A DNA stretch of 43,673 nt from Parvularia atlantis (Eukaryota; Opisthokonta; Rotosphaerida). Made by a program: the position numbers and the translations under genes. Of this stretch, positions 17,193-43,651 are shown in pieces. The DNA lies in contig CALSCO010000533.1 in the NCBI GenBank assembly GCA_943704415.1, forward strand, positions 1 to 43,673. The letters run 5' to 3'. Positions within the stretch are counted from its first letter, which is position 1; the number at the start of each line of letters is the position of its first letter. The notes beneath the pieces are model-generated. The model was not told the DNA's origin, did not search any database, and saw only the letters and a program-made list of their open reading frames with translations.

Positions 17193-20100
17193 ATGGGCAG
17201 CAGGAGAAACCCGCCGCCGCGGCGCGTGTTTGGCGGCGGGGAGATGGGCGAGCTCGTGCGGACGTTTGCGTGGGGCGCGCACCCTCTTGGGCCGATCGAG
17301 CAGTGGCCCCATGTCCTCGTCACCACCGTCAACACCCTGCTCAACTCGCGCTTCCCCAAGGTCGTGTACTGGTCGCGCGAGCTCTATGCCATCTACAACA
17401 ACGGCTACCGCGCCATCCTCGGCGCGCGCCACTCGCCCGAGCTCGGCCGCTACGGTGCGTCGTGCGGGTTGCTGGGTTCGGTGGGCCTGGTCTGTGGGCA
17501 ACGCGCGCGTGGGAACGCGCAGCTGGCGGGTGCGGACTGGCCCGGTGGCCTGCCTGGTCTGTGCTCCCGTGCGATGCGCCTGCTCATGCGTCTTCGCTCT
17601 CTGCACGATGCCACTGGTCTCGCTGCGATGAGCCGCTGTCCTCATCCTCGCCCTCCTTGTCTCTTTGTCTCACCTTCGTCGTCGCACAGCCGCCGACATC
17701 TGGCCCGAGATCAAGGAGTACATCGTGAGCATGGTCGACGCCGTCCACAGCACCGGCGAGCCCACGTTCCTCTCCGACCACGCCCTCATGATTACGCGCA
17801 GCGGCTACGTTGAGGAGGGCTACTTCACCTTCTCGTGTTCGCCCGTCTACCTCGAGAACGGCACGTGCGGCGGCGTCCTGACCACGGTGCGCGCCGCAAC
17901 CCTCGCCCTGCGCCGCCCGCGCTCACCGCACAGCCGCGCAAGATCACCGAGACGACCGAGCGCATCGTCGGCGAGCGCCGCCTGCGTGCCCTGCGCGACC
18001 TCGGCTCGATGACGTCGGGCAAGCGCACGGTCGACGAGGCCGCGGACGCAATCAGCGAGGTCCTGCGCATGCACAACGCCGATACGATCTTCAGCCTGCT
18101 GTACCTGCCGGGCGACAACGTGCAGCGGGTGCGGGCTAGTGTGCCACACGCTCGCCGCTGCCGTCGCTCACCAGTGTCGCGCACAGCTGCACCTCAAGGC
18201 ACGCTCGTGCATCGCCGCTGAGCACCCGGCCGCTGCGCGCGAGATCAACCTCGCCGCCGGCGCTGCATGCTCGCCCCTGCCGCTGTACGACGTGGTGCAG
18301 CACCGGCGCATGCAGGTCGTCGGCGACCTCGACCGGCTGTACAGCGCGCCGCTACCCGGTGCGCACAGGCAGAAATATTTCCCTTTTTGGGCGACTGACT
18401 CCTCGTTCGCTTGCAGGCGGCCGCTGGGCTGACGCGGCGCAGACCGCGGCCCTGTGCCCGATCGCGTGCACGTGGGACGAGCGCGCGCTCGGCGTGCTGG
18501 TGATCGGCCTCAATCCGCGCCGGCCGTTCGACGAGAGCTACCGCGCGCACATCGAGCTGCTCGCGGGCCAGGTCGCGAATGCCATCAGCACGGCCAAGTC
18601 GTCGAGCGACGACCGCAAGCGCGTGCAGGTGCGGCTGTCGGCATCCGCGCTGACTGTGTCGCGCCTGACGGGGCCGCGCGCACTTCCCTGCAGATGCTGG
18701 CCGAGCTCGACCGGGCCAAGACCGCCTTCTTCTCCAACGTCTCGCACGAGCTGCGCACACCGCTAACGCTCGTCCTGGGCTCGCTGGAGCAGATCGCGAG
18801 CGACCGTGAACACGCCATCCCGATCGAGCAGCGCGGACGCCTCAACCTGGCGCAGCGCAACTCGTCGCGCCTGCTCAAGCTTGTCAATGCCCTGCTCGAC
18901 TACAGCCGCATTGAGGCAGGGCGGCTCAGCGCGTGCTTCGTGCCGACCGAGCTGGGCACGCTCACGGCCGACCTTGCGAGCATGTTCCGGTCGCTGATGG
19001 AGACGGGCGGGCTGCGATACGACGTGGTGATCGAGCCGATTGGCGAGGCGGTCTACGTCGACGTGGACCTGTGGGAGAAGATCGTGCTCAACCTGCTGTC
19101 GAACGCGTTCAAGTTCACCCTGCGCGGCACGGTGCTCGTGCAGCTGCGCCGCGGCACGCTCGAGCGACACGTTGAGTCGACGCAGAGCAGCCTGCTCGCG
19201 GGCGCGCCCCAGGTCGACTCCGTGCCGGCCGCCGTGTTGAGCGTGACCGACACGGGCTGCGGTGTGCCGGCCGACAAGCTGGCGCGCCTGTTTGAGCGCT
19301 TCTACCGGGTCGAGGCGTCACAGGGGCGCAGCTACGAGGGCTCGGGCATCGGCCTCGCGCTCACGCACGAGCTCGTCAAGCTGCACGGCGGGCGCATCGA
19401 CGTCCGCAGCGAGCACGGCGCTGGATCGACCTTCACCGTCACCATCCCGCTCGGCTCGCGCCACCTCCCGCCCGAGCAGGTGCACGACTCTGCGCCGCGC
19501 CTGCTCGGCGACAAGAGCAACACCGGTCGCGGGCGCCTTAGCACGCCCTTTGTCGAGGAGGCCTCGCGCTGGCTGCCCGACACCGAGGCACGCATGCGCC
19601 ACGACCCTGTCAACCTCGGCACCGTTGCACCGTCGCTCGCGGGGCGGCACGAGATGGACGTCGAGTCGGCTAGCAGCCTCAGCAACAGCGCGAGCGGGCC
19701 CGCCCAGAGCGGCTCGTCGATGTCGCTGCTCGCGGCCGAGGACGACATGGAGGTCAACGAGTCGCTCAGCACGCTTACACGCCTGGCCCTCAGCGGCGCA
19801 CCGACGGGCGGGAGTGAGGCAAGCACGCTGCCGATGTCGACCGCCTCGGGCCAAGCCCTCGTCCCGCTCGCCTCGACCAGCACCGTCGCCCCGCTCGAAG
19901 CAAAGCCCGCACGCTCCCGCCGCGCCAACAAGACCGACCCGACGCGGTCGCTCGAGTGGTCGCCATCCGGCGGGGCGTCGCTCGAGGACGACGAGACGAT
20001 GTCGCCGCAGACGATCTACCGGCATGTGCTGCGCGGACGGCACCCCGACGGCAAGAAGCCGACGGTGCTGCTGGTGGACGACAACGCGGACATGCGCATG

Positions 20101-22893
20101 GTGCGCGCCATGGGCGTTTGTGTGTGCACACGCACTCAGCAGCCGCGCGTGCCCACAGTTCATGCAGTCGCTGCTCAGCACCGACTTTAGCGTGTTCACG
20201 GCCGTGGACGGGCAAGAGGCCCTTGAGCGCGTGCTCGCGTCCATGAACACGTTCAGCGACGTGCCGGACGTGGTCGTGGCCGACGTGATGATGCCGCGGC
20301 TGGACGGCCTCGGCCTCGTGCGGCAGCTGCGCGCGCAGGAGGGCACGCGCCACATCCCCGTCATCCTGCTGTCAGCGCTCGCGGGCGAGGACGCGCGCGT
20401 CGAGGGCCTGCAGAGTGGCGCGGACGACTACCTGTGTAAGCCGTTCTCGGCCAAGGTGCGACCTGCGCCGGGTGCGAGGCGAGTGCGCGCGCATGCTGAC
20501 CGCCCCCCGCCTCGCACAGGAACTGCTCGCGCGCGTGCAAGCGCACCTGAGCATGAGCCTGCTGCGCGCGCACCTGGAGGAGATGGTCCAGCAGCGCACG
20601 CGGCAGCTGCTTGATACGCAGGAGCAGTTCCGCAACCTCGCGCACCTGAGCCCCGTCGGCATCCTGCGCTCGACGATGGAGGTGCGCACCTGGTCAGCCG
20701 GCAAACGGTCGTGCACGGTCAAACGACTGCGGCGCGCAGGGCCACATTGTCTACGCCAACGACCGCTGCCTGGCCATGCTCGGCGTCGAGCGCTGGGAGG
20801 CCGACGCCAAGCCGACGTTGGCGCAGTGGGTGTACGCCGACGATCGGCACCTGTTCGCGTCCCCCGTCTACGAGGCGCATCTGCGCGAGCAGTGCGAGTT
20901 CCGGCTGGTACGGCCGGGCGACGGGCGCGTGGTGTGGGTGTGCGGCCAGAGCGCGCCCGAGATGGACCCGCAGACGGGCGTGCTCCGGGGCTACATCTCG
21001 GCGCTGACCGATATCACCGAGCAGAAGCGGCTCGTGGCCGAGCACTTTGCGGCCGTGGCGCGCGCCGAGCAGGAGGCGCAGCAGCGCGCGACCGATGCGG
21101 ACGAGCACCGGCGGCAGCAGGAGACGTTTGTGGACATGGTCTGCCACGAGATTCGCAACCCGCTCAACGGCATCGTCAACAACATGGACCTGCTCCAGAC
21201 CAACACCATGCGCCGGCGCGAGCTGCTCCTCAGCCTGCCCGAGAGCGCCGAGCGGGCGCAGCTGCTGGAGCAGGTGACGGACGACCTGTCGATCTTCACC
21301 TCAGTCGACATCTGCATGAAGCACCAGGTGCGACCGCGCCGCGCTGTGCGTGTGCGCTCACACGCATCACGACGACGCGCAGCGCAAGGTCACCGACGAC
21401 GTGCTCAACCTGTCGCGCCTGAGCTCGGGCAACGTCGCGCTGAGCCTCGAGCCAATGCGGCCTGTACCGATCGTGCGCTCGATTGCGGACATGTTTGCGG
21501 CACAAGCGCGCGCGCACGCGATCGACCTCGTCTGCGACCTGCCCTCGCCGCCGCAGGATGACATCGTATTCCAGTGCGACCCGTACAGGCTCTCACAAGT
21601 GCGCGGCTCTATGCGCTGCTGCGGCATGCCGCTAACTCTTGAGGCGCAGGTGCTCATCAACCTTGTGTCGAACGCGATCAAGTTCACCGCGCGAGCGGCC
21701 GAGCGGCGCGTGACGATCAAGCTCGCGATCGCGCCGCACGTCGACGCCAGCAGCAGCAGCAGCAGCAGCAGCGACGTCAGCAGCAGACGATCGAGCGAGA
21801 GCAGCAGCCGGGCGACGGCGTCGTCGTCGTCGTCGTCGGCCGCCGTGTCGACGTCAACCTCAGGCGCGCTCGTGCCGCAGCCGGGCAACGTCGTTACTCT
21901 GCGCGCGACGGTGTCGGACACGGGCATTGGCATCGCGCCGGACGAGCTCACGACGCTGTTCCAGCGCTTCCGCCAGGCCAACTCGAAGACGTACAACCGC
22001 TACGGGGGCTCGGGACTCGGCCTGCATATCACTAAGCTCGTGCTGGGGCTGATGGGCGGCAGCGTGGACGTGACGAGCGTGCCGCTGCAGGGCTCGACGT
22101 TTGTCGTGACCGTGCCGTGCCGCGTGTGCCACAAGAGCGAGCTGCAGCCGACGGCGGCCAGCGAACACATGGTCGCCATTGCGGCCGCAGCCACCGCGCC
22201 CGCGCAAGAGACCCTGAAGCGGCACGCGGAAGAGGAGTACGACGGCCCGTCGTCCGAGTCGCTCGCGCGCCCGAGCGTTTCGCTGCCGGGCAAAGTCGGG
22301 GCCGAGGGCGAGAACTCGGCGTCGCCGCTGCCGCGCCGACGTCGGCTGTCGCAGGACGGGCAGCGGCGGGTGCTCAACATTTTGGGTGCGCAGCGGGCCT
22401 GCCGTGCGCTGCTAGCCTGGCACTGAGCCGCGGTGCGCGCACACTGGCAGTCGTCGAGGACAACGACATCAACCAGCGTGTGCTGCGCCGCCAGCTCGAG
22501 CTCGCGAGCGAGTTCAAGTGCCAGACGCAGGTCGCGTCAAACGGGCAGGAGGCCGTCGACCGCTACGTGCACGAGGGCCCGTTCGACGTGATTTTGATGG
22601 ACGTGGAGATGCCGGTCATGGACGGGCTGGCGGCGACGCGGCGCATCCGCGAGCACGAGGCCGCGGCGGGGCTGCGCGCTGTGCCGATTGTGGGCGTGTC
22701 GGGCAACGCGCGCGACGTGCGTCCCATGGGTGAACGCGCGTTGCCGTGCTAATTTGGCACGCGCGTGCGCGCGCAGGTGCACATCGCCGCCGGGTTTGCC
22801 GCGGGCATGACCGAGTACCTCATCAAGCCGTACAAGAAGGAGCAGCTGGTGCAGCTGGTCATCCAGGCGACCGCGTGGCCGGCGCCCCAGTGA
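17193..22893 (+). CDS. Double hybrid sensor histidine kinase (PAS-GAF-HK-REC-PAS-HK-REC)
   Basis: Predicted multistep phosphorelay sensor of 1605 residues, 13 exons: 17193-17454, 17690-17886, 17943-18128, 18187-18358, 18417-18628, 18694-20100, 20159-20455, 20520-20681, 20740-21327, 21383-21598, 21650-22385, 22451-22716, 22777-22893. Order: PAS-like sensor (GAHPLGPIEQWP, then SRFPKVVYW), GAF-like region, HisKA 1 (SHELRTPL, His361), HATPase 1 (NAFKF, DTGCGVP, GSGIGLAL), REC 1 (LLVDDN, Asp854 in ADVMMP, CKPF), coiled linker, PAS (GHIVYANDRC, DITEQKR), HisKA 2 (CHEIRNPL, His1101), HATPase 2 (SNAIKF, DTGIGI, GSGLGLHI), REC 2 (VVEDND, Asp1529 in MDVEMP, IKPY). All catalytic motifs look intact. No transmembrane segment seen, so likely cytosolic. 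Intron 1 (235 bases) is the longest read here. The GAF region lacks a phytochrome context. Confidence 0.9.
21748..21771 (+). repeat. (CAG)8 microsatellite inside the kinase gene
   Basis: Eight CAG units, read as AGC (serine) in frame, lie in the second HATPase domain between the NAIKF and DTGIGI motifs. A short GTC/TCG run follows at about 21819-21837, also coding serine. Both expand a loop that is normally short in HATPase domains, and they are likely length-variable. Confidence 0.7.
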
Positions 22894-34259: not shown

Positions 34260-35679
34260 TCACTCGTCCAGCAGCTCGGCCAGCTCGGCCTCCTCTTCGG
34301 CCGTGAGCTCGCCCGCGCCCTGCGGCGTCTGCTGCGGCGACGCGTTGTCCTTGTCGGGCGCTGCGGTGTGCACGCGTCGTGGTGAGCGAGCCGCGTGGGC
34401 AGGCAGCGTGGCGCACCGTCGAGGTCCCAGAAGCGCACGGTGCAGTCGAGCGAGCCCGAGATGATGCGGCGCCCACGCACGACCAGGCTCGTGACCTCGT
34501 CAAAGTGGCCCTCGATGCGCCGCACGGCCGCACCCGTCTGGAGACTCCACACCGTCACGGTCTCGTCGCGCCCGCCCGTCACCAGGTGCAGCCCGCTCAC
34601 GCCCGCGCCGGGGCACGTCGCGCACGTCTTGACCCAGTCGTCGTGCTCGAAGACGGCGACGTCCTTGCCGGTCTGCGCGCGCGTGCGCGCGTGCGTGCCG
34701 TGCCATGAGCCGTCGTCGTGCTCGTTGCGGCGCGGGCGCAATCAGCACACCGCGAGGTCCCAGCGGCGCGCCGTCTTGTCGGCCGAGACCGAGAACAGCG
34801 CGACGACGCCCTCGGCCTCGTCGAGCGCAAAGTGCAGCGCGAAGACGGTCGTGGCGTGGCCGAGCAGCTGCTGCACGGCCTCGTCGGGCGCGCGCTCGTC
34901 CCAGCGGCGGATCGACCCGTCCGACCCGGCGCTGAAGATCTGTGCGCGCGCCGCCGCCGTCGCCGTCACGTCGTTGTCACCTCGGCGGCACGTCGGCGGC
35001 ACGTCGGCGCACCTCGCCCGCGTGCACTGCGACGTGCTCGACCGGGCGCGTGTGCCCGCGCAGCACCGTCTCGGCGCGCCCGCTGCGCACGTCCCACACG
35101 CGCAGCGTCCGATCCGAGCTCGCCGTCACGACGGTGCCGCGCCGCGCCCCCGCCGCCACGCCCTTGACAAAGTCGCCGTGGCCCGTGAGGCGCTGCACGA
35201 CGCGCGCCGGCGCCGTGCCGACGTCCCAGACGGCCGCCGTCTTGTCCCACGAGCCCGTGACGAGCGCGGCATCGCCGTCGAGCAGCGCGACCGCCGTGAC
35301 CGGCCCGTGGTGCACGCCGCCGCCCAACGTCGCCGCCACGCGCCGCGCGCCGCCGTCGATCCGCGCCGCCGCGAAGCCCGACGTCGCCGCCCAGAGCGCC
35401 CCGTCGCCGCCGCCCGCCGCGGCCAGCGCCAGCACCTTGCTCTTGAGCTGCACAGGGCGGCCGCGCGTGAAGTTGGTGCGCTGCCGTGTGCACGGAGGTC
35501 GCGGTCAGTGCGCGAATGCGCACGGCCAGCGCGGGCGACAACGACGCGACCTCGGCACGCCGCCGGCGCACGTCCAGGTCGCGGTCCGACTGGAAGAAGG
35601 CGTCGACGTCGTCCGTCACCGACATCCGAGTCTGAAGCGAACGCTCTGCGTCCTTGACAGGCTCGGAGAAGGCTGCCAC
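34260..35679 (-). CDS. WD40-repeat protein
   Basis: Predicted beta-propeller scaffold of unassigned pathway. Five exons: 35679-35524, 35480-35013, 34939-34751, 34672-34417 and 34360-34260 (TGA). The product is 389 residues. Repeats end in typical WD pairs: VTGSWDKTAAVWDV, TASSDRTLRVWDV, SAGSDGSIRRWDE, SADKTARRWDL, TGGRDETVTVWSL and SGSLDCTVRFWDL. With a diverged first blade this makes about seven blades. An N-terminal ~55-residue helical segment precedes the propeller, and a short acidic tail follows it (TAEEEAELAELLDE). Introns are 43, 73, 78 and 56 bases; the 73-base one has internal repeats of GCCGACGTGCC. I do not assign an orthologue. Confidence 0.85.
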
Positions 35680-35786
35680 CTACCAACGTCACGGTGCTAG
35701 CAGCTTGGGCTCAGTCTTGGCGCCGGCACTGGGGCTGCTGGACGTTGTCGTAGGCGGGGCGGATGCGGCGTGGACGTCTCACTTGC

Positions 35787-35837
35787 GCTTCACTCGTGCT
35801 TCACTCGTGCTTCACTCGTGCTTCACTCGTGCTTCAC
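35787..35837 (+). repeat. 11-base tandem repeat, about 4.6 copies
   Basis: GCTTCACTCGT is repeated four times without change (35787-35830), then seven bases of a fifth copy follow. It lies in the 202-base gap between the SARM1-like gene stop (35882) and the WD40 gene start (35679), both on the minus strand. It is therefore about 110 bases upstream of the WD40 start. The 11-base period is near one DNA turn, so repeated factor sites on one face are possible. Confidence 0.85.
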
Positions 35838-35881: not shown

Positions 35882-38800
35882 TCACTGCGCGCACTGGTGC
35901 GCCGCGTGCAGCAGCTGCGGCACCTGCGCGTCAAACTTCTCGGGCGTGCTCAGGTCCACGTAGAGCTTGCCCGTGAGCAGAAAGCTGCGTGCGCGGCGTC
36001 CGTCAGGCCCCGCGTGCACGAGGCGCGACAGCGCACCCGAGCTCGCCCTTGGGCGGCCACGACCGCGTCAGCTGCTCCTCAAGGAAGACAGGGATGATGA
36101 CCTTGCTGAGCTCGGACGCGAGCGAGACCTCGCGGCGGCAGTTGATCGACTGACCCGAGCCGATCAGCCCACGCGTGCAAGGGTGTGGGCGCGCGCTCGC
36201 GTGCCTGGAGGTACGACGACGAGATGCACGCGATCAGCACGCTCGTGCTCCGGATGCCGTTGTCGATCTTCTCAAACAGCGAGTCGCCACTGCGCATGAC
36301 CGCGTCGTCCATCCAGCAGCGCATGCCTACCGCGCTGTCAATGAGCAGGGCGCACCAGCAACGGCAGCAACAGCAGTGCGTGCAGCCACACCGCCGCTCG
36401 TGAGCACGTCAAATAGGCGCCGCGCCGCGGGCTTGTTGGACCACGAGTACGAGATGAAGACGTCGTTGCGCGCCGCGGAAGCCTCAGCTGGCGTCAAAGC
36501 GGCCACCGCGATCGCCGTCGGCACGGCAGCGGTCGGCTCGGTGTCGTCGTCGTCCGTCTGCGCCGGCGGTGTGTGAGCACTAGCAGGGTGCGCCGCAATG
36601 TCACGCAGCGTGCACCATGTACAGCGGGCGCAGTTTACGCAGGCTCGAGGCCATGCGGATGAACAGGCCGCGCTTGATGTCAAGGCGCTCCAGCGACTTT
36701 TCGATCTGGTCCACCGAGCATGAGCACCGTATGCTACTGGCGGCCAGCGCACGCACCAGGTCGGCGTCGCACGTGAGCAGCGTGTCCATGTCGATGCCCT
36801 CGGCCTGCAGCGCCTTGACGTGCTTGCCCAGGATTTTGCCGTCGGCGCCGCCCGCAAAGCCGCGCAACCAGACCTCGAGGTCGCTGCTCTGTTGCAGCGC
36901 GCCGTCAGCACGCTCCTCTCAGCACGTGCGCCGTCCGCACCGCCAGGAAGACGTCGTCGTCGAGTGTGCGCAGGCACTGTGCGGCAAGGAAGCGCGCGCG
37001 CGACGTGCCCGTCACGTAGAGATGGCGCAGCGTCGGCAGAACGCGCTTGCGCATCGCGACGCGCTGCCAGCGCGATGTTTGCAAGCCGCGGCGAGGGGCA
37101 GCCGACGCACCTGGCTGTCGTGCTTGAACTCGCTGCTCGCAAAGTAGCGCGCCGCCGTGAACGCCGCAAAGCCGAGCACGACCGGATCCTGTCGCAGCGC
37201 AGGGAGCAATCAGCGCACGCCGAGCGGACCGCAGTGGCCGCACTTGGCTGCGCAGCAGCTGCAGGAAGAAGCGGAACTCGCGCGGGGGCAGGATGAACGA
37301 CCCCCTGCTCCGCCGCCGTCAGCAGCTGTCGCACCACCAGCGTGCTGCACGCGCGCACTCAAACAGCGGCGAGTGCTCGATGAATTCGCCGACGGCGCTC
37401 AGCAACTTTTCGGCCTGAGGCATGTGCGTGCGTGAGCAGCGAGTGTGAGCGGTCGCGGTGGGCGCGCACCTTCAGGATCGAGAGCGCTTGCGGCTCGAGC
37501 GCCATGAAGGCGACTGCGCAGGCGCAAAGGGCCACGTCAGCCACTTGAAGCCGCTGCGCACGGGTACGCGCACCGGCGGCAGAGGCGTTGAAGGCGGTTG
37601 TGAGGTTGCTCGAGCGCACCTTGGCGAGCAGCGCCGGCAGGCCCACGTTCTTGACCTTCTCGCTCGAGAGCAGCTGTGGCACAGCATCAGCGACCGCGTG
37701 ACCGCGCGCACGCCTAACGTGCCTGGTAGACAAAGCCGCGCACGTTAGCGTGGTAGCACAGGCACGCCAGCGCGCCCGCGGCCGGCCTGGCGATGAGATG
37801 GTCAGCGCACGCACGACCGTGGAACGAGAAGACGCACCGCTCAAGCAGGTCCTCGTTGACGTGGCCCGTGCCCGGCTGGAGGCACTCGAGCAGCGGCACG
37901 ATGCCCTCGTGCATGGTGATCTTCATGGCTGGCACGCGCGCGTGCGTCGTGAGCACGGCAGCAGAAGCAGTCAACGTGACGCACCAATCTGCGGTACGGC
38001 GCTGAGGTTCCACAGGCACGACGCGACGGCTGCGCGGGTCTGTGCGACAAGTGCGCCCCCGTCAGTGGCAACGACGATGTGTCGCGAGCGGGCGATGTGC
38101 GCGCCTTGGCCTCGGGCAGGCGCAGGAACTTGATCAGCACGGGCACGCACTCGCCCTGTCGTGCACGCGTGCGTTCTTGTGAGGGCACGCGGCACGCGGG
38201 GGCGGGGGTGCGTGCGCGCACCTGGCTCACGACGGCCAGCTCGGCCTCGTCGAACGAGGTGGACGCGCGGACGATGATCGCGGCGATGGCCTGTGCCGCG
38301 ACCGAGTTCTTGGCCGCTTTAAGCTGCGCCACGACGGCGTCCATGAGACCGCAGTCGGCGGTGAGCAGCACGGAGCGGGTGAGCGGCGTGACGACGAGCT
38401 GCGCGCCGCGCCGCGCCGTCAGCCGCGATGTGCAGCGCAGCGGGCCCCCGCGCCGCGCACCGCCTCCAGCAGCGAGCACAGCGAGAGCTGGACGACGCCG
38501 ACCTTGTGCGTGCCGATGACCCGCGCGATGTCGCGCGCGCACGCCACGCCACCCGCGCTGGTCAGCACCCGATCCCACGCCGCCGCGTTCTCCTCGCACA
38601 GCGCGAGCACGTCGCTGGCCAGGTCCACGAGCGTCTGGCGCTCGGCGGCTGCTGATCGTGAGCGTCTCACGACGGAGCAGCAAGCGGAGCAGCGCACGCG
38701 TCAGGTCCTTGCCCAGGTTGCGATCGAGGCTCTGCACGGCCGTGCGCATGAACGTAGCGAAGCGCTGTGCCGCCTCGGCCTCGCGCTGCTCGCCCGTCTG

Positions 38801-39013
38801 CGATGTGCGCTCGTGGGACGTTGCGGATCACGCGCGGCCGGCGCGCACCATCGACGCGACCGCCAGCGACGTCTTGCGCAGCCGCACCGTGCCGTGCTCG
38901 CCGCCGTCGACCGTCTCGGCCAGCAGCGCCGCGGCCGACGGCAGCGTCGCCGCGGCGCCGGCCGCGCTCTCGGCCGCTGGGCGGGCGATCTTGGCCGCGC
39001 GCGCCGCAAACAT
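35882..39013 (-). CDS. SARM1-like ARM-SAM-TIR protein, predicted NAD+ hydrolase
   Basis: Predicted TIR-domain NADase of the SARM1 architecture, 685 residues (human SARM1 is 724). Twenty exons: 39013-38849, 38797-38698, 38648-38461, 38398-38222, 38155-38105, 38039-37985, 37928-37838, 37786-37744, 37673-37574, 37513-37470, 37414-37359, 37304-37244, 37188-37111, 37063-36941, 36888-36757, 36705-36616, 36557-36392, 36326-36205, 36149-36037, 35984-35882. Residues ~56-444 are armadillo-like helices (TRAAVASCLWNLSAVPQ; AAGALACLCYHAN). ~445-518 are one SAM domain (LEVWLRGF; LERLDIKRGLFIRMASSL). ~549-660 are TIR (NDVFISYSW; CWMDDAVMRSG; STSVLIACIS; KVIIPVF). Glu621 in CRREVSLA sits 13 residues before the Pro of IIPVF, as the catalytic Glu642 does in SARM1. 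Two introns (38104-38040, 36204-36150) have GC donors. The SAM intron 36756-36706 is in frame and less certain. Confidence 0.87.
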
Positions 39014-39109
39014 CCTGATCAGAAGAGAGCACAACGGGTCACTCGGCACGCCGCGAGTCGGCACACCGGGCTACGTGCGTACTCGCAAACAACAACACAC
39101 GAGGAGAAC
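39014..39109. other. Short tandem intergenic gap
   Basis: Only 96 bases separate the stop of the Cys-repeat receptor (39110) from the start of the SARM1-like gene (39013), both on the minus strand. The receptor's 3' end and the promoter of the SARM1-like gene must share this space. I see no TATA box. Confidence 0.5.
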
Positions 39110-42100
39110 TCACCGCGAGTCACGCCCGATCATCTCCAGCGACGAGCCCGAGCCCGACGGCCGGCTGCCCGGCGGCGGCGGCGGCGCGCCCGGCGCGAGC
39201 TCCTCGAGCGAGTAGGCCGGCCCGGACGGCTCGTCGGCCGCGTGCAAGCTCTTCTGCCGCGTGCGCATCTGGTGCAGGAAGTACGAGAAGCCGAAGGCGA
39301 CCATCTGGCCAAAGGCGATGACACCGGCGCCGATGGCGACGATGGACGAGATGAACGTGAGCGGCGAGATGTTTTGCACCTGCCGCACCTGCGCGCACGT
39401 CGCGGCGTGTCAGCGGCGTGCGGCACAAAGGGCGAGCGCGTGCCTGGAGGAAGTAGGGCGGTGCCGTGACGGCAAAGAGCATCTCGAGCTTGTTCGCGGG
39501 CGGCGCGGCCACGCCCTCGCTCACGCTGATCAGCGACCAGTCGAAGCCGGTCGACGTCGTCACGTCAAAGATGTTGATCGACTCGGTCGCGACGGCCGCG
39601 AGCTCGACCGTCGTCGTGCCCGTCACGGTCACGTTGCCACTGCTGCCGCCGTCGCCGTCGCCCGAGGCCGAACCGCCGTCGCCGCCCGCGCTCTCGGCCA
39701 CGATCGTCTGCGACACGTTGTACCACGCGCCGTCGAAGCGCTGCGCCGCGAGCCAGTACGCCACGGCTGGGGCAAAGACGGGCGCGTTGGGCGCGATGCC
39801 GGTCACGGCGAGCACGATCGAGGTCGCGGTCGAGGGCAGGGTGCCATCGAGCTCGATCGTGACGGTCGTTGTGCTGGTGCCGTCGGTCGTCGTGGCGCAG
39901 CCAGTGATGTTGGCCGAGGGCGGCGACAGCACAAAGACGAACGCGGATGCGGGCGCGCCAGGGCATGTAATGGGAGAGGCGATGTACGAGATCGAGCCGA
40001 CGACGCGCGTGGACGCCGAGAGGATCGGGGCGCCGCCGGTGAAGGTCGTGCCGGGCTGGAGCGTCGCGAGCGTGCCGTACTGGTTGAGCACGTAGTTGTG
40101 GATCTGGTAGGCCGTGAGCACCTGTGTGCGCACGTTCACGGTCAGTGCCTTTGGGTGGGCGCGCGAGCAAGGCCACCAGCACGCCGATGATCGTCCAGAC
40201 CGCGATCATGCCGCGGAACGACGAGCGCAGCTCGACCAGGCGCAGGCCGTGCACGTCGAGCCGGAAGAGCCACCGCGGCGTGCGCAGGATGACCGCAAAC
40301 GGGCCGAGGACTGGGCGCAGACGCTGGCGGTAGATCGCCGCGGGGATGGCCACGAGCACGGCCAGGCCGAAGAACACGATCAGGTAGATGTAGCCCAGCG
40401 TCAGGCCGAGGTATGCGCCGAGGACAGAGTTGTTGAGCGCGGCCGAGGTCGTCTGCACGGCTTGGGCGTCGGACGCTACAGTCTGCGCCGCCGCCGCGCC
40501 GGTCGGGCACCACTGCGTCTCGGTGCAGGGCGCGCAGGTCGACGTGGCGGGCACGCGCACCGTGCCGGCCGGGCACACGATGCACACCGCGGCCGACGCG
40601 CCGCCGGCCGTGCCGTTCGTGACCGTGCCGGCCGGGCAGGCGATGCAGGCGAGGCCGTCGACGGCCGCGTACGAGCCCGCGGCGCACGGGACACACTGGT
40701 TGCCCGGGCCGACGCGCGCCTGGCCGAGCGGGCAGACCGAGGTCACGCCCGAGAGCGTCGTGACGGCGAGCGGGTCGGTGCTGACGGCGACGCCGTCGAG
40801 CTGCGCCGTGAGCTGGAAGGTGTAGGTCGTGGCGGGCGAGAGCAGCGGCAGGGTGTACGGCAGGCTCGGTGTCTTCCACGCCGAGTAGGTGAGCACCGCG
40901 ACGCCGTTGATCGTGAAGGTGATCACGGTCGCGACCGACGGCTGCGGCACGGGCGTCCACGTGAGCTGCACCGACGACGTGGTTCGCTGCAGCAGCACGA
41001 GTTCCGCCGCGGGCACCACGGGCAGCAGCGGTGTGCACGACTCGTCGCCGTTGTCGCTCACCGTCGGCTGGGTGATCGACACGACGTCGAGCTGCGCCAC
41101 GTTGAGGTTGCACAGGCGCGGATTGTTGACCACCGTCACCGCCGCCACGCTCGCCAGCGTCGCCGTGAGGCCGTCGGCGTTGGTCAGGTTCTTGCAGTCC
41201 TGCACGACCACGCTCTGCTCGACGCGGATCAGGCCCGCGAGCGAGTCCAGCGTGACCACGTCCGCGTTCAGTAGCTGCAGCGAAATCAGGCGCTGGCTCG
41301 CGGCGACGCTGGCGAGCAGCGACAGCGGCACGCGCGCGTCCACCAGCGCCAGCCACGAGCTCGTCGCAAACGGGATGAACGCGCTTGGTGCCTGGCCCGT
41401 GAACGTGTAGTTGACCGGCAGCACCGCCGCAAACGGGCTGCCGCACGACATGCACAGGAACGCGACCTGCCGCGCCGACGTGAACGGCAGCGCCGCGGGC
41501 AGGTCGAGCGACTTGAGCGATGCGCAGTCGACGCAGGACACGGTCAGCTTGGCCGTAGCGTACGCCAGGCCCGAGTACGTGGGCGCGCTGATGAGCGTAA
41601 GCGCGGGCGTGCTCGCGACCGTGACGAGCGCCGGGCACGTTGTGCAGCGCAGGTCAATCTGTGCGCGGTCGCGCGCGGTCAGCGCCTCAGCCGCAGCCCG
41701 CGCGCGCGGCCTGCGCACCGTGACTGTGTAGAACGTCGTGCCGCTGCCGGCGGTCGGCGGCGTCGCGCTCAGCGCCTGCAGCGCCGGCAGGCTGCCCAGC
41801 GTCGTGAGGGCGCCGCAATCGGTGCAGCGCACGGCGACAATCGCTGGCGCCTGCACGCCCGCGGCGACCGGCGGCTGCGCGAGCGCGAGCTGCGGCAGGA
41901 CACCGATGCTCGTGAGGCTCGGGCAGGTCGTGCAGGCGAGCGTGAGCGAGATCTCGCCCGAGACGGTCACGTTGGCCAGCGCCGTGAGCGACGGCAGCGC
42001 GGTGTGGTTGGTGAGCTGCGCACATTGCGTACTGCGCGCGCGGACGCGTGAGTGTGGTATCGCGCACGCAGTGCATGCGCACAGGCGGCGCGCACCACGA

Positions 42101-43651
42101 GACCGAGACAAAGCCCGAGACGATGCTTGTGAGCGTGAGGGCCGGCAGGGTCGGCAGAGCCGCACACGAGACGCAAGCGAGCGTGAGCTGGCCGCGGACG
42201 GTGCGCAGCGAGGCAAAGGTGCCGAGGCTCGTGAGCGCGGGGCAATTGGTGCACGTCGCCGTGAAGAAGCCGAGGCCGGCCGCTTGCGTCAGCGTCTGCA
42301 GCGCCGAGAAGGTCGGGAAGCTCTGGATGCCCGCACAGGCTGTGCAGCGCAGGGTGAGCGTGCCGGCGACAAAGTTGCTCGTCGGGGCAAGCGCAACGAG
42401 GCTCGTGAAGGGGCCCAGCTGCAGCGCGGCCGAGGCGCACGTGTCGCAGGTGATGGTCAGGTACGAAACGGCGGCCTGGTTGGCGGCAGCGGACGAGATA
42501 AGCTGCATCGACGGGAAGCTGCCGAGCGTCGCGACGACGGGGCAGGCCGTGCAGGCGACCGTGAGCGACGTGTCACTGCTCGTGATGGCCAGCGCGATCA
42601 GCTGCGGGAACACGCCCACGGTCGTGACGGCGGCGCAGTCGGTGCAGTTGAGCGTGATCGCCGCCGTCGTGGCGTAGCTGAGCCCCGTCAGCGCCGCGGG
42701 GAAGCTGCCCAGCGTCGTGAGCGCGCCGCACGTCGTGCACGTGGCGGAGAGCGCAACGCTGAAGAAGGGCGCGCTGCTCGACGTCACCGCCGTCACGCCC
42801 GTCAGCGCCGGGAAGGTTGCGAGGCTCGTGAGCGCGGCGCAGCGTGTGCACGCGAGCGTGAGCGTCGCCGCGGCCGTGCCTGAGTACAGCGTCGCGGTCG
42901 AGGCCAGCAGCGGGAAGTCTCCGTGCGTGGCGAGCGCGCCGCAGTCGGTGCAGCGCAGCGCGATCGTGGTCGTCGCGCGGCCTGCGTGCGCGTGCGCGTG
43001 CGCGTTCGTCAGCACGGCCGCCCGCACGCGATGAGATCGCGCCGCACCGCCAACCGCGTTCTGCCCGCGGCTCAGGCTGAGCAGCGCCGGGAACAGGCCG
43101 AAGCTCGTCAGCGCCGGGCAGTTGGTGCAGGTCAGCTGGAGCGTCGCGACGGTCGGCTGGTTGAGCGGCGAGACGGCGCCGTACGCGAGCGCTGTGAAGT
43201 TGCCAAAGGTCTGTGGCGGGGCGTCTGAGCGGTCGATTGCGACATGCTGCGGTGCGCACCGCCAGCGCCGAGCAGTTGGTGCACGAGATCGACACGGACA
43301 CGCTCGACGACGCCGACAGGGTCGAGGTGCTCAGGGCCGTCAGGGCGGTAAACGCGGCGAGGCTCGTCAGCTCGGCGTCGCAGTCGACGCAGCTGACGGT
43401 CAGCACCGCGCCCGCGTCGAGCGACGCCAGCGCCTCGTCGTACACGCCCTGCGCAACCGTGCAGCACGCTGCGAGCGGGTGGCGAGCGCACCGTGCGCGA
43501 GGTCAAAACAACGTCGAAACGGGAGGTTTCACAGCCGAGACGCACCGGGCAGCGGCGTCGCGCCGTGCGCCGTACGCGCCGCCGCCACGACCAGCACCAG
43601 CACCAGCACCAGCGGCAGCAGCATCACCGCAGCCGTCCGCAGCACGCGCAT
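39110..43651 (-). CDS. Large membrane receptor with tandem CxxC leucine-rich-like repeats, FN3, GCC2-type Cys repeats and three TM segments
   Basis: Predicted cell-surface protein, 1375 residues, eight exons: 43651-43546, 43468-43260, 43210-43048, 42981-42096, 42031-41719, 41658-40165, 40121-39444, 39388-39110. A signal peptide starts at the first ATG (AVMLLPLVLVLVLVVAAA). About eighteen tandem units of ~35-45 residues follow, each with C-x2-C then A-L-T-x-L and F-P-A-L. Next come LRR-like strands, an FN3-like domain (SVQLTWTPV; TYTFQLTAQLDG) and three ephrin-receptor/GCC2-type motifs (CAAGSYAAVDGLAC, CPAGTV). TM1 is ~984-1002, TM2 ~1042-1057, then ~235 residues outside, TM3 ~1295-1320 and a ~55-residue cytoplasmic tail rich in Pro/Ser. 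Two introns (40164-40122, 39443-39389) have GC donors. No kinase or other enzymatic domain. Ligand unknown. The gene is complete in the window. Confidence 0.82.

What the first reader, a model, noticed from the sequence alone, without database searches (positions are those of the whole stretch)
35882..39013. A SARM1-type ARM-SAM-TIR protein in a protist, with the catalytic glutamate conserved
The joined exons give armadillo helices, a SAM domain and a C-terminal TIR domain in the SARM1 order and at nearly the SARM1 length. SARM1's NAD+ cleavage depends on Glu642, 13 residues before the Pro of its IVPI strand. Here Glu621 (RREVSLA) lies 13 residues before the Pro of IIPV. Differences are also informative: only one SAM domain is seen where SARM1 has two, so the octamer interface may differ, and the last region (LLTGKLYVDLS) looks like that of microbial TIR proteins. 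If real, an ARM-gated NADase would predate neurons and could be a self-destruct or defence switch in a free-living cell.
Basis: partly seen in the sequence, partly recalled or inferred. Interest (0 to 1): 0.88.

Follow-up and report, generated by a model that had tools for sequence, protein, structure and literature searches.

The report
Protist ARM–SAM-like–TIR protein, not SARM1
A single-celled eukaryote appears to carry a gene laid out like the animal nerve-death enzyme SARM1 (armadillo repeats, a probable SAM domain, a TIR domain), but its TIR part looks more like bacterial TIR proteins, so it may be a parallel construction rather than an ancient copy of SARM1.

Summary
The observation largely holds. 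A minus-strand gene (39013..35882) splices through 19 short introns into one 692-aa frame. The TIR domain is certain (TIR_2, E 8e-24). ARM-type repeats are likely, though every ARM match is below its curated cut-off. SAM is probable but weak (SAM_1 E 0.061, only with intron 15 removed). The Glu is residue 628, not 621.

That Glu is no SARM1 mark: Glu in 84 of 84 rows aligned here, and in over 70% of TIRs per PMC7075850. Three published hallmarks of the SARM1 TIR are absent, including the ligand-binding Trp four residues before the Glu (Asn here). No SARM1 chain is among the PDB sequence matches. The nearest relatives found are bacterial TIRs, but the collections searched hold almost no eukaryotes. 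One SAM-like segment is seen where SARM1 has two. SARM1-like proteins in choanoflagellates, amoebae and algae are already reported.

Best reading: an ARM-restrained, SAM-clustered TIR effector that works like SARM1 without being a demonstrated SARM1; NADase activity plausible, unproven. An in-frame splice to the upstream receptor-like gene is not excluded.

The parts
35882..39013 (-). whole gene, 20 exons, 692 aa: ARM-type repeats - SAM-like domain - TIR
   Evidence: gene model; 18 of 19 introns recovered by a window-trained gene finder that was seeded with it
38849..39013 (-). exon 1, Ala/Arg-rich N-terminus MFAARAAKIARPAAES; a targeting peptide is possible but not supported beyond chance
   Evidence: sequence; 8% of shuffles reach its hydrophobic moment
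36941..38797 (-). exons 2-14, residues 56-451: likely ARM/HEAT-type repeats
   Evidence: ARM_ARMC5 E 1.9e-4, HEAT_2 0.0043, Arm 0.035, all below cut-off; designed ARM protein E 2.7e-7 summed over stretches; reversed segments show no ARM/HEAT match
36616..36888 (-). exons 15-16 with intron 15 between: probable single SAM domain, residues about 452-522
   Evidence: SAM_1 E 0.061 with intron 15 removed, no match with it kept; pairwise z 3.6 to SARM1 SAM1 and 0.3 to SAM2; fold of the contiguous piece inconclusive
35882..36470 (-). TIR domain, residues 555-692 (parts of exons 17-20)
   Evidence: TIR_2 E 8.2e-24, profile 1-122 of 122, best stretch residues 558-684
36129..36131 (-). codon of Glu628, the candidate catalytic residue (Asn624 stands where Trp is usual, four residues before)
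   Evidence: Glu in 84 of 84 rows, Trp at -4 in 72 of 84 rows, window and human SARM1 included in the 84
36327..36391 (-). intron 17 (GTGTGG...TAG), the least certain junction, inside the TIR
   Evidence: weak acceptor; no gap at this point against bacterial TIRs; the gene finder chose other joins or a gene break
39015..39113 (-). possible 99-nt intron (GTGAGT...CAG) that would join the upstream receptor-like gene in frame; otherwise intergenic
39110..43651 (-). upstream gene model, 9 exons, 1359 aa, receptor-like by eye; weak ephrin-receptor-like and fn3 matches below cut-off
34260..35625 (-). downstream gene model: WD40 repeat protein

Best explanation
A TIR effector protein of a protist. 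The ARM repeats hold the C-terminal TIR apart and sense a ligand or partner, the SAM-like domain gathers several chains, and on release the TIR domains pack together and cleave NAD+ through Glu628, as a self-destruct or defence step. Shown: one continuous spliced frame (by model, not by transcript) with a TIR domain, likely ARM repeats and a probable SAM, in that order, and a Glu aligned with the TIR catalytic Glu. Inferred: restraint by ARM, clustering by SAM, NAD+ cleavage and the defence role. The TIR resembles bacterial TIRs more than the SARM1 TIR group, so the SARM1 layout was perhaps reached in parallel.
For: Gene model. TIR_2 84.9 bits, against 45.8 bits for human SARM1. ARM-type matches, below cut-offs; human SARM1's own ARM part scores worse in Pfam (Arm 0.48, HEAT_2 0.15). 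SAM_1 match only when intron 15 is spliced. Reversed segments without such matches. Glu in 84 of 84 rows. Best locus L001, 40% identity over query residues 5-123. Endings KLYADMSSDEKY, KFYADFTVEEKY and KLYADFTSPEKY in L001-L003 against KLYVDLSTPEKF here. Top PDB TIRs 3h16, 7uxr, 7uwg and 8g83 (named AbTIR, an NAD+ hydrolase). TIR-only matches to anti-phage families (PADLOC PDC-S66 8.9e-13, bSEFIR 3.8e-9; NCBIfam retron-TIR 2.4e-8, far below its cut-off). ARM restraint and SAM octamers in SARM1: PMC7688312 (passages).
Against: The Trp four residues before the Glu, which binds ligand in SARM1 (PMC7075850, passages), is Asn624 here; 12 of 84 rows, the window included, lack Trp, so NADase activity is uncertain. 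The SAM match is below Pfam's cut-off, the PDB search with the SAM piece gave one unrelated hit, and a low-confidence fold (mean pLDDT 54.6) had no PDB match at E 0.001 or better. The gene finder breaks the gene inside the TIR in 3 of 5 settings. No expression data, no protist relatives in the collections used, no structure of the spliced protein.
Confidence: 0.5

Rival explanations
1. The TIR is not an enzyme: it is a scaffold or adaptor that recruits partners by TIR-TIR contact, with ARM and SAM as further binding parts.
For: Asn instead of the ligand-binding Trp at -4 of the Glu. PMC7075850 (section 10) says Glu frequency does not necessarily track enzymatic activity and that it exceeds 90% in TLR subgroup 3.2.
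Against: The top PDB matches are bacterial TIRs, one of them named an NAD+ hydrolase; TIR-only matches to anti-phage families; Glu kept.
Confidence: 0.25
2. A true but strongly diverged SARM1 orthologue, inherited from an early eukaryote or passed between eukaryotes, which lost one SAM domain.
For: Same domain order and near-equal length. Shuffle z against human SARM1: TIR 4.95, SAM to SAM1 3.6, ARM 3.5, whole protein 2.3. SARM1-like proteins reported in other protists (PMC6040629, PMC13142454).
Against: No SARM1 among the PDB matches at E up to 5 or 10, while human SARM1 finds C. elegans TIR-1 at 1.6e-137. SARM1 TIR hallmarks absent. In a rough tree the window TIR and SARM1 fall on opposite sides of a supported split (98/88), but SARM1 sits on a branch of 8.02 and the program calls such places unsure.
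Confidence: 0.12
3. The gene is the intracellular end of a membrane receptor: the upstream receptor-like gene is spliced in frame to the ARM-SAM-TIR gene through a 99-nt intron (39015-39113).
For: A GTGAGT...CAG intron joins the frames exactly and removes the upstream TGA; the gene finder makes the join in 2 of 5 cost settings. The upstream protein has a hydrophobic N-terminus and further hydrophobic stretches (by eye).
Against: The same two settings also join the downstream WD40 gene, so they over-join; the other three separate the genes. 99 nt exceeds 97% of the 176 modelled introns, itself included. GTGAG donors are 2 of 176 in the joined model, this one included, and GTGCG 123 of 176. The TGA and ATG give a simple gene boundary.
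Confidence: 0.1

Closest known systems
SARM1 (human 7knq; C. elegans TIR-1 8p2m)
   Same: ARM, then SAM, then C-terminal TIR; similar length; Glu 13 residues before the Pro of the next strand
   Different: one weak SAM-like segment instead of two; BB loop, Trp at -4 and EE loop differ; TIR nearer to bacterial TIRs in these searches; no significant similarity over ARM
Bacterial TIR_2 proteins (L001 Paracoccaceae MAG, L002 Agitococcus lubricus, L003 Anaerocolumna MAG; PDB 3h16, 8g83)
   Same: L001-L003 31-40% identity over the TIR and a shared KLYxDxS/T..EK-like ending
   Different: Trp kept at -4 in L001-L003; their other domains were not examined
TIR proteins of microbial eukaryotes (choanoflagellate SARM1 and Arm-TIR proteins, PMC6040629; uncharacterised eukaryotic TIR clades and SARM1-like TIRs, PMC13142454)
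   Same: TIR proteins of single-celled eukaryotes; Arm-TIR combinations already reported

Membership tests
TIR domain (Pfam TIR_2) | score above the curated cut-off | tested here: met
   84.9 bits against 28
SARM1 | ARM, SAM, TIR in this order in one chain | tested here: inconclusive
   TIR met; ARM and SAM matches below cut-off
SARM1 | two tandem SAM domains forming an octamer ring | tested here: not met
   one SAM-like segment; human SARM1 gives two SAM stretches in the same library
SARM1 | catalytic Glu | tested here: met
   Glu628 aligns with the SARM1 Glu; Glu in 84 of 84 rows, so not diagnostic
SARM1 | ligand-binding Trp four residues before the Glu | tested here: not met
   Asn624; W71 and E75 bind ligand per PMC7075850 passages
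SARM1 | BB loop E(R/K)LEAG | tested here: not met
   window reads DDAVMRSGDS; motif from PMC7075850 passages
SARM1 | EE loop H(D/E)YQ | tested here: not met
   window reads LSTPEKF there by alignment; motif from PMC7075850 passages
SARM1 | significant sequence match to known SARM1 | tested here: not met
   not among PDB matches at E up to 5 and 10; pairwise BLAST E 0.042 against a single sequence
SARM1 | ARM allosteric NAD/NMN pocket | not testable with these tools
SARM1 | NADase activity | not testable with these tools
   needs an enzyme assay

The most novel reading that the evidence does not exclude
The SARM1 plan (ARM restraint, SAM clustering, TIR NADase) was invented a second time in a protist, by joining a bacterial-like TIR to ARM repeats and one SAM domain, giving an independent ARM-gated NAD+ self-destruct switch; possibly even as the inner end of a membrane receptor.
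Probability: 0.3. Interest if true: 0.65.

Novelty: new variant of a known kind. Interest (0 to 1): 0.42.

Why it matters
If the protein is an ARM-gated NADase built on a different TIR, the nerve-death enzyme's layout would be a solution reached more than once, and there would be a second natural system for asking which parts of SARM1 control are essential. If it is inactive, it shows that layout and the Glu alone do not predict NADase activity.

Tried and rejected
A whole-genome search was not possible because no genome is held for this window. A viral-contig search with the TIR found 19 pattern matches, none a relative. The fold of the contiguous SAM piece, which includes 17 residues read from intron 15, was of low confidence and gave 3 PDB matches at E up to 10, none at 0.001 or better. 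A targeting peptide at the N-terminus was not supported beyond chance. The TIR tree was kept only as weak evidence: few columns, very long SARM1 and window branches, bootstrap not settled, one SARM1 row. A comparison of the ARM pocket was dropped because the ARM parts do not align. The organism was not identified; one literature search on the splice donors gave no lead in its listing.

Full report
What is there. The minus strand of 39013..35882 carries a gene of 20 exons. Joining them gives 692 codons and a stop. The 19 introns are 47-66 nt long; 16 begin GT and 3 begin GC, 18 end CAG and one ends TAG. The window as a whole has this style: a gene finder written here and trained on the window models 172 or 176 introns, depending on the cost of a new gene, median 56 nt, with GTGCG as donor in 122 of 172 or 123 of 176. 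The finder was seeded with this gene, so its recovery of 18 of 19 introns exactly is a check of consistency only, and the splice scores come from the same training set.

Results against the model. Intron 17 has a weak acceptor, and the finder places other introns there. Five cost settings were tried: two join this gene to both neighbours, skipping its last codons and stop; three separate it from both neighbours but cut it in two at 36312/36327, inside the TIR. The homology argues for my join: TIR_2 matches profile positions 1-122 of 122 across it, and bacterial TIRs align with no gap at that point (there is one gap earlier in that alignment).

Domains. TIR: TIR_2, 84.9 bits, E 8.2e-24, residues 558-684. 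ARM: ARM_ARMC5 E 1.9e-4, Arm 0.035 and HEAT_2 0.0043 on pieces, all below their curated cut-offs; a designed ARM protein at 2.7e-7 over the whole protein, summed over four stretches with individual E-values of 0.068-0.34. Human SARM1's own ARM region scores worse in Pfam (Arm 0.48, HEAT_2 0.15), so weak ARM scores do not count against it. SAM: SAM_1, 14.1 bits, E 0.061, only with intron 15 removed; no match with it kept. Pairwise z is 3.6 to the first SAM of SARM1 and 0.3 to the second. A PDB search with the SAM piece gave one unrelated hit at E 0.12. A single-sequence fold of the contiguous DNA reading, which contains 17 intron-derived residues, gave five helices at mean pLDDT 54.6 and no PDB match at E 0.001 or better: inconclusive. 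Reversed segments (residues 56-297, 252-451 and 447-530, close to but not the same cuts as the forward pieces) gave no ARM, HEAT or SAM match.

Is it SARM1? The whole protein and the TIR alone were compared with the PDB chain sequences; 26 and 18 distinct sequences matched at E up to 5 and 10, and none is named SARM1. The best TIR matches are bacterial. As a yardstick, human SARM1 finds C. elegans TIR-1 at 1.6e-137. BLAST against human SARM1 gives 23 bits, E 0.042, over the TIR. Shuffle z-scores are 4.95 for TIR, 3.6 for SAM to SAM1, 3.5 for ARM and 2.3 for the whole protein: distant kinship of single domains is likely, but this does not show orthology. A survey of TIR domains (PMC7075850; section 10 and passages seen) lists marks of the SARM1 group: BB loop E(R/K)LEAG, EE loop H(D/E)YQ, and a Trp and a Glu (positions 71 and 75) that bind ligand. 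Of these the window has the Glu only. The survey says that the Glu occurs in more than 70% of TIR domains and does not necessarily track activity.

Relatives. A SARM1 TIR search in 29 of those genomes found matches in 7 and gave nine more loci. Of the 88 loci, 82 gave a usable TIR. With the window and human SARM1 this made 84 rows. The Glu column is Glu in 84 of 84; Trp at -4 in 72 of 84; the window has Asn. The loci were chosen by likeness to an alignment led by the window TIR, so the counts describe that sample, not TIRs at large. L001 is 40% identical over query residues 5-123, and L001-L003 share the C-terminal ending. In a tree of the 84 rows the nearest rows to the window by path are L003, L001, L002, L006 and L064, and a supported split (98/88) separates the window from SARM1; but the SARM1 branch is 8.02 and the window branch 3.29 changes per column, and the program warns that such places are unsure. 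Human SARM1 is the only other eukaryotic row. The nearness to bacteria is therefore partly a result of what could be searched.

What is in print. PMC6040629 (passages) reports choanoflagellate SARM1 homologs with the conserved Glu, and TIR proteins with Arm domains in choanoflagellates. [quoted passage not shown] PMC7688312 (passages) describes the SARM1 octamer, the tandem SAM domains and the ARM NAD+ site. In the listings of six searches of the open library I saw no report of this particular combination; most subscription papers are not held and most listed papers were not opened, so absence is weak evidence.

Neighbours. Upstream (39110-43651) a nine-exon model encodes 1359 aa with a hydrophobic start and further hydrophobic stretches (by eye), and ephrin-receptor-like, fn3 and DUF7130 matches below cut-off. 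A 99-nt GTGAGT...CAG intron could join it in frame to the ARM-SAM-TIR gene. The finder makes this join in 2 of 5 settings, the same two that also join the downstream WD40 gene. The length exceeds 97% of 176 modelled introns, and GTGAG donors are 2 of 176, this one included, so separate genes are likelier. Downstream (34260-35625) lies a WD40 protein.

Verdict. A well-formed gene with a SARM1-like layout; kinship with SARM1 not shown; NADase activity plausible from the Glu but doubtful from the missing Trp. How it most likely works: ARM restrains, SAM clusters, TIR acts on NAD+; all three steps are inference from SARM1 and bacterial TIRs.

Noticed in passing
whole window: Modelled introns use GTGCG donors (122 of 172), 24 of 172 are GC-AG, 158 of 172 end CAG, median 56 nt; an unusual splice style in a window of about 69% GC.
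   Followed up: partly
window 39015-39113: Possible in-frame intron that would fuse a receptor-like protein to the ARM-SAM-TIR protein.
   Followed up: partly
window 39110-43651: Large receptor-like protein with many Cys-containing repeats (by eye); best Pfam match DUF7130, below cut-off.
   Followed up: partly
window 35779-35837: Tandem repeat, 11-nt unit, 5.4 copies, shortly after the stop codon of the TIR gene.
   Followed up: no
window 17193-22893: Gene model that by eye encodes a hybrid histidine kinase with receiver domains; not scanned.
   Followed up: no
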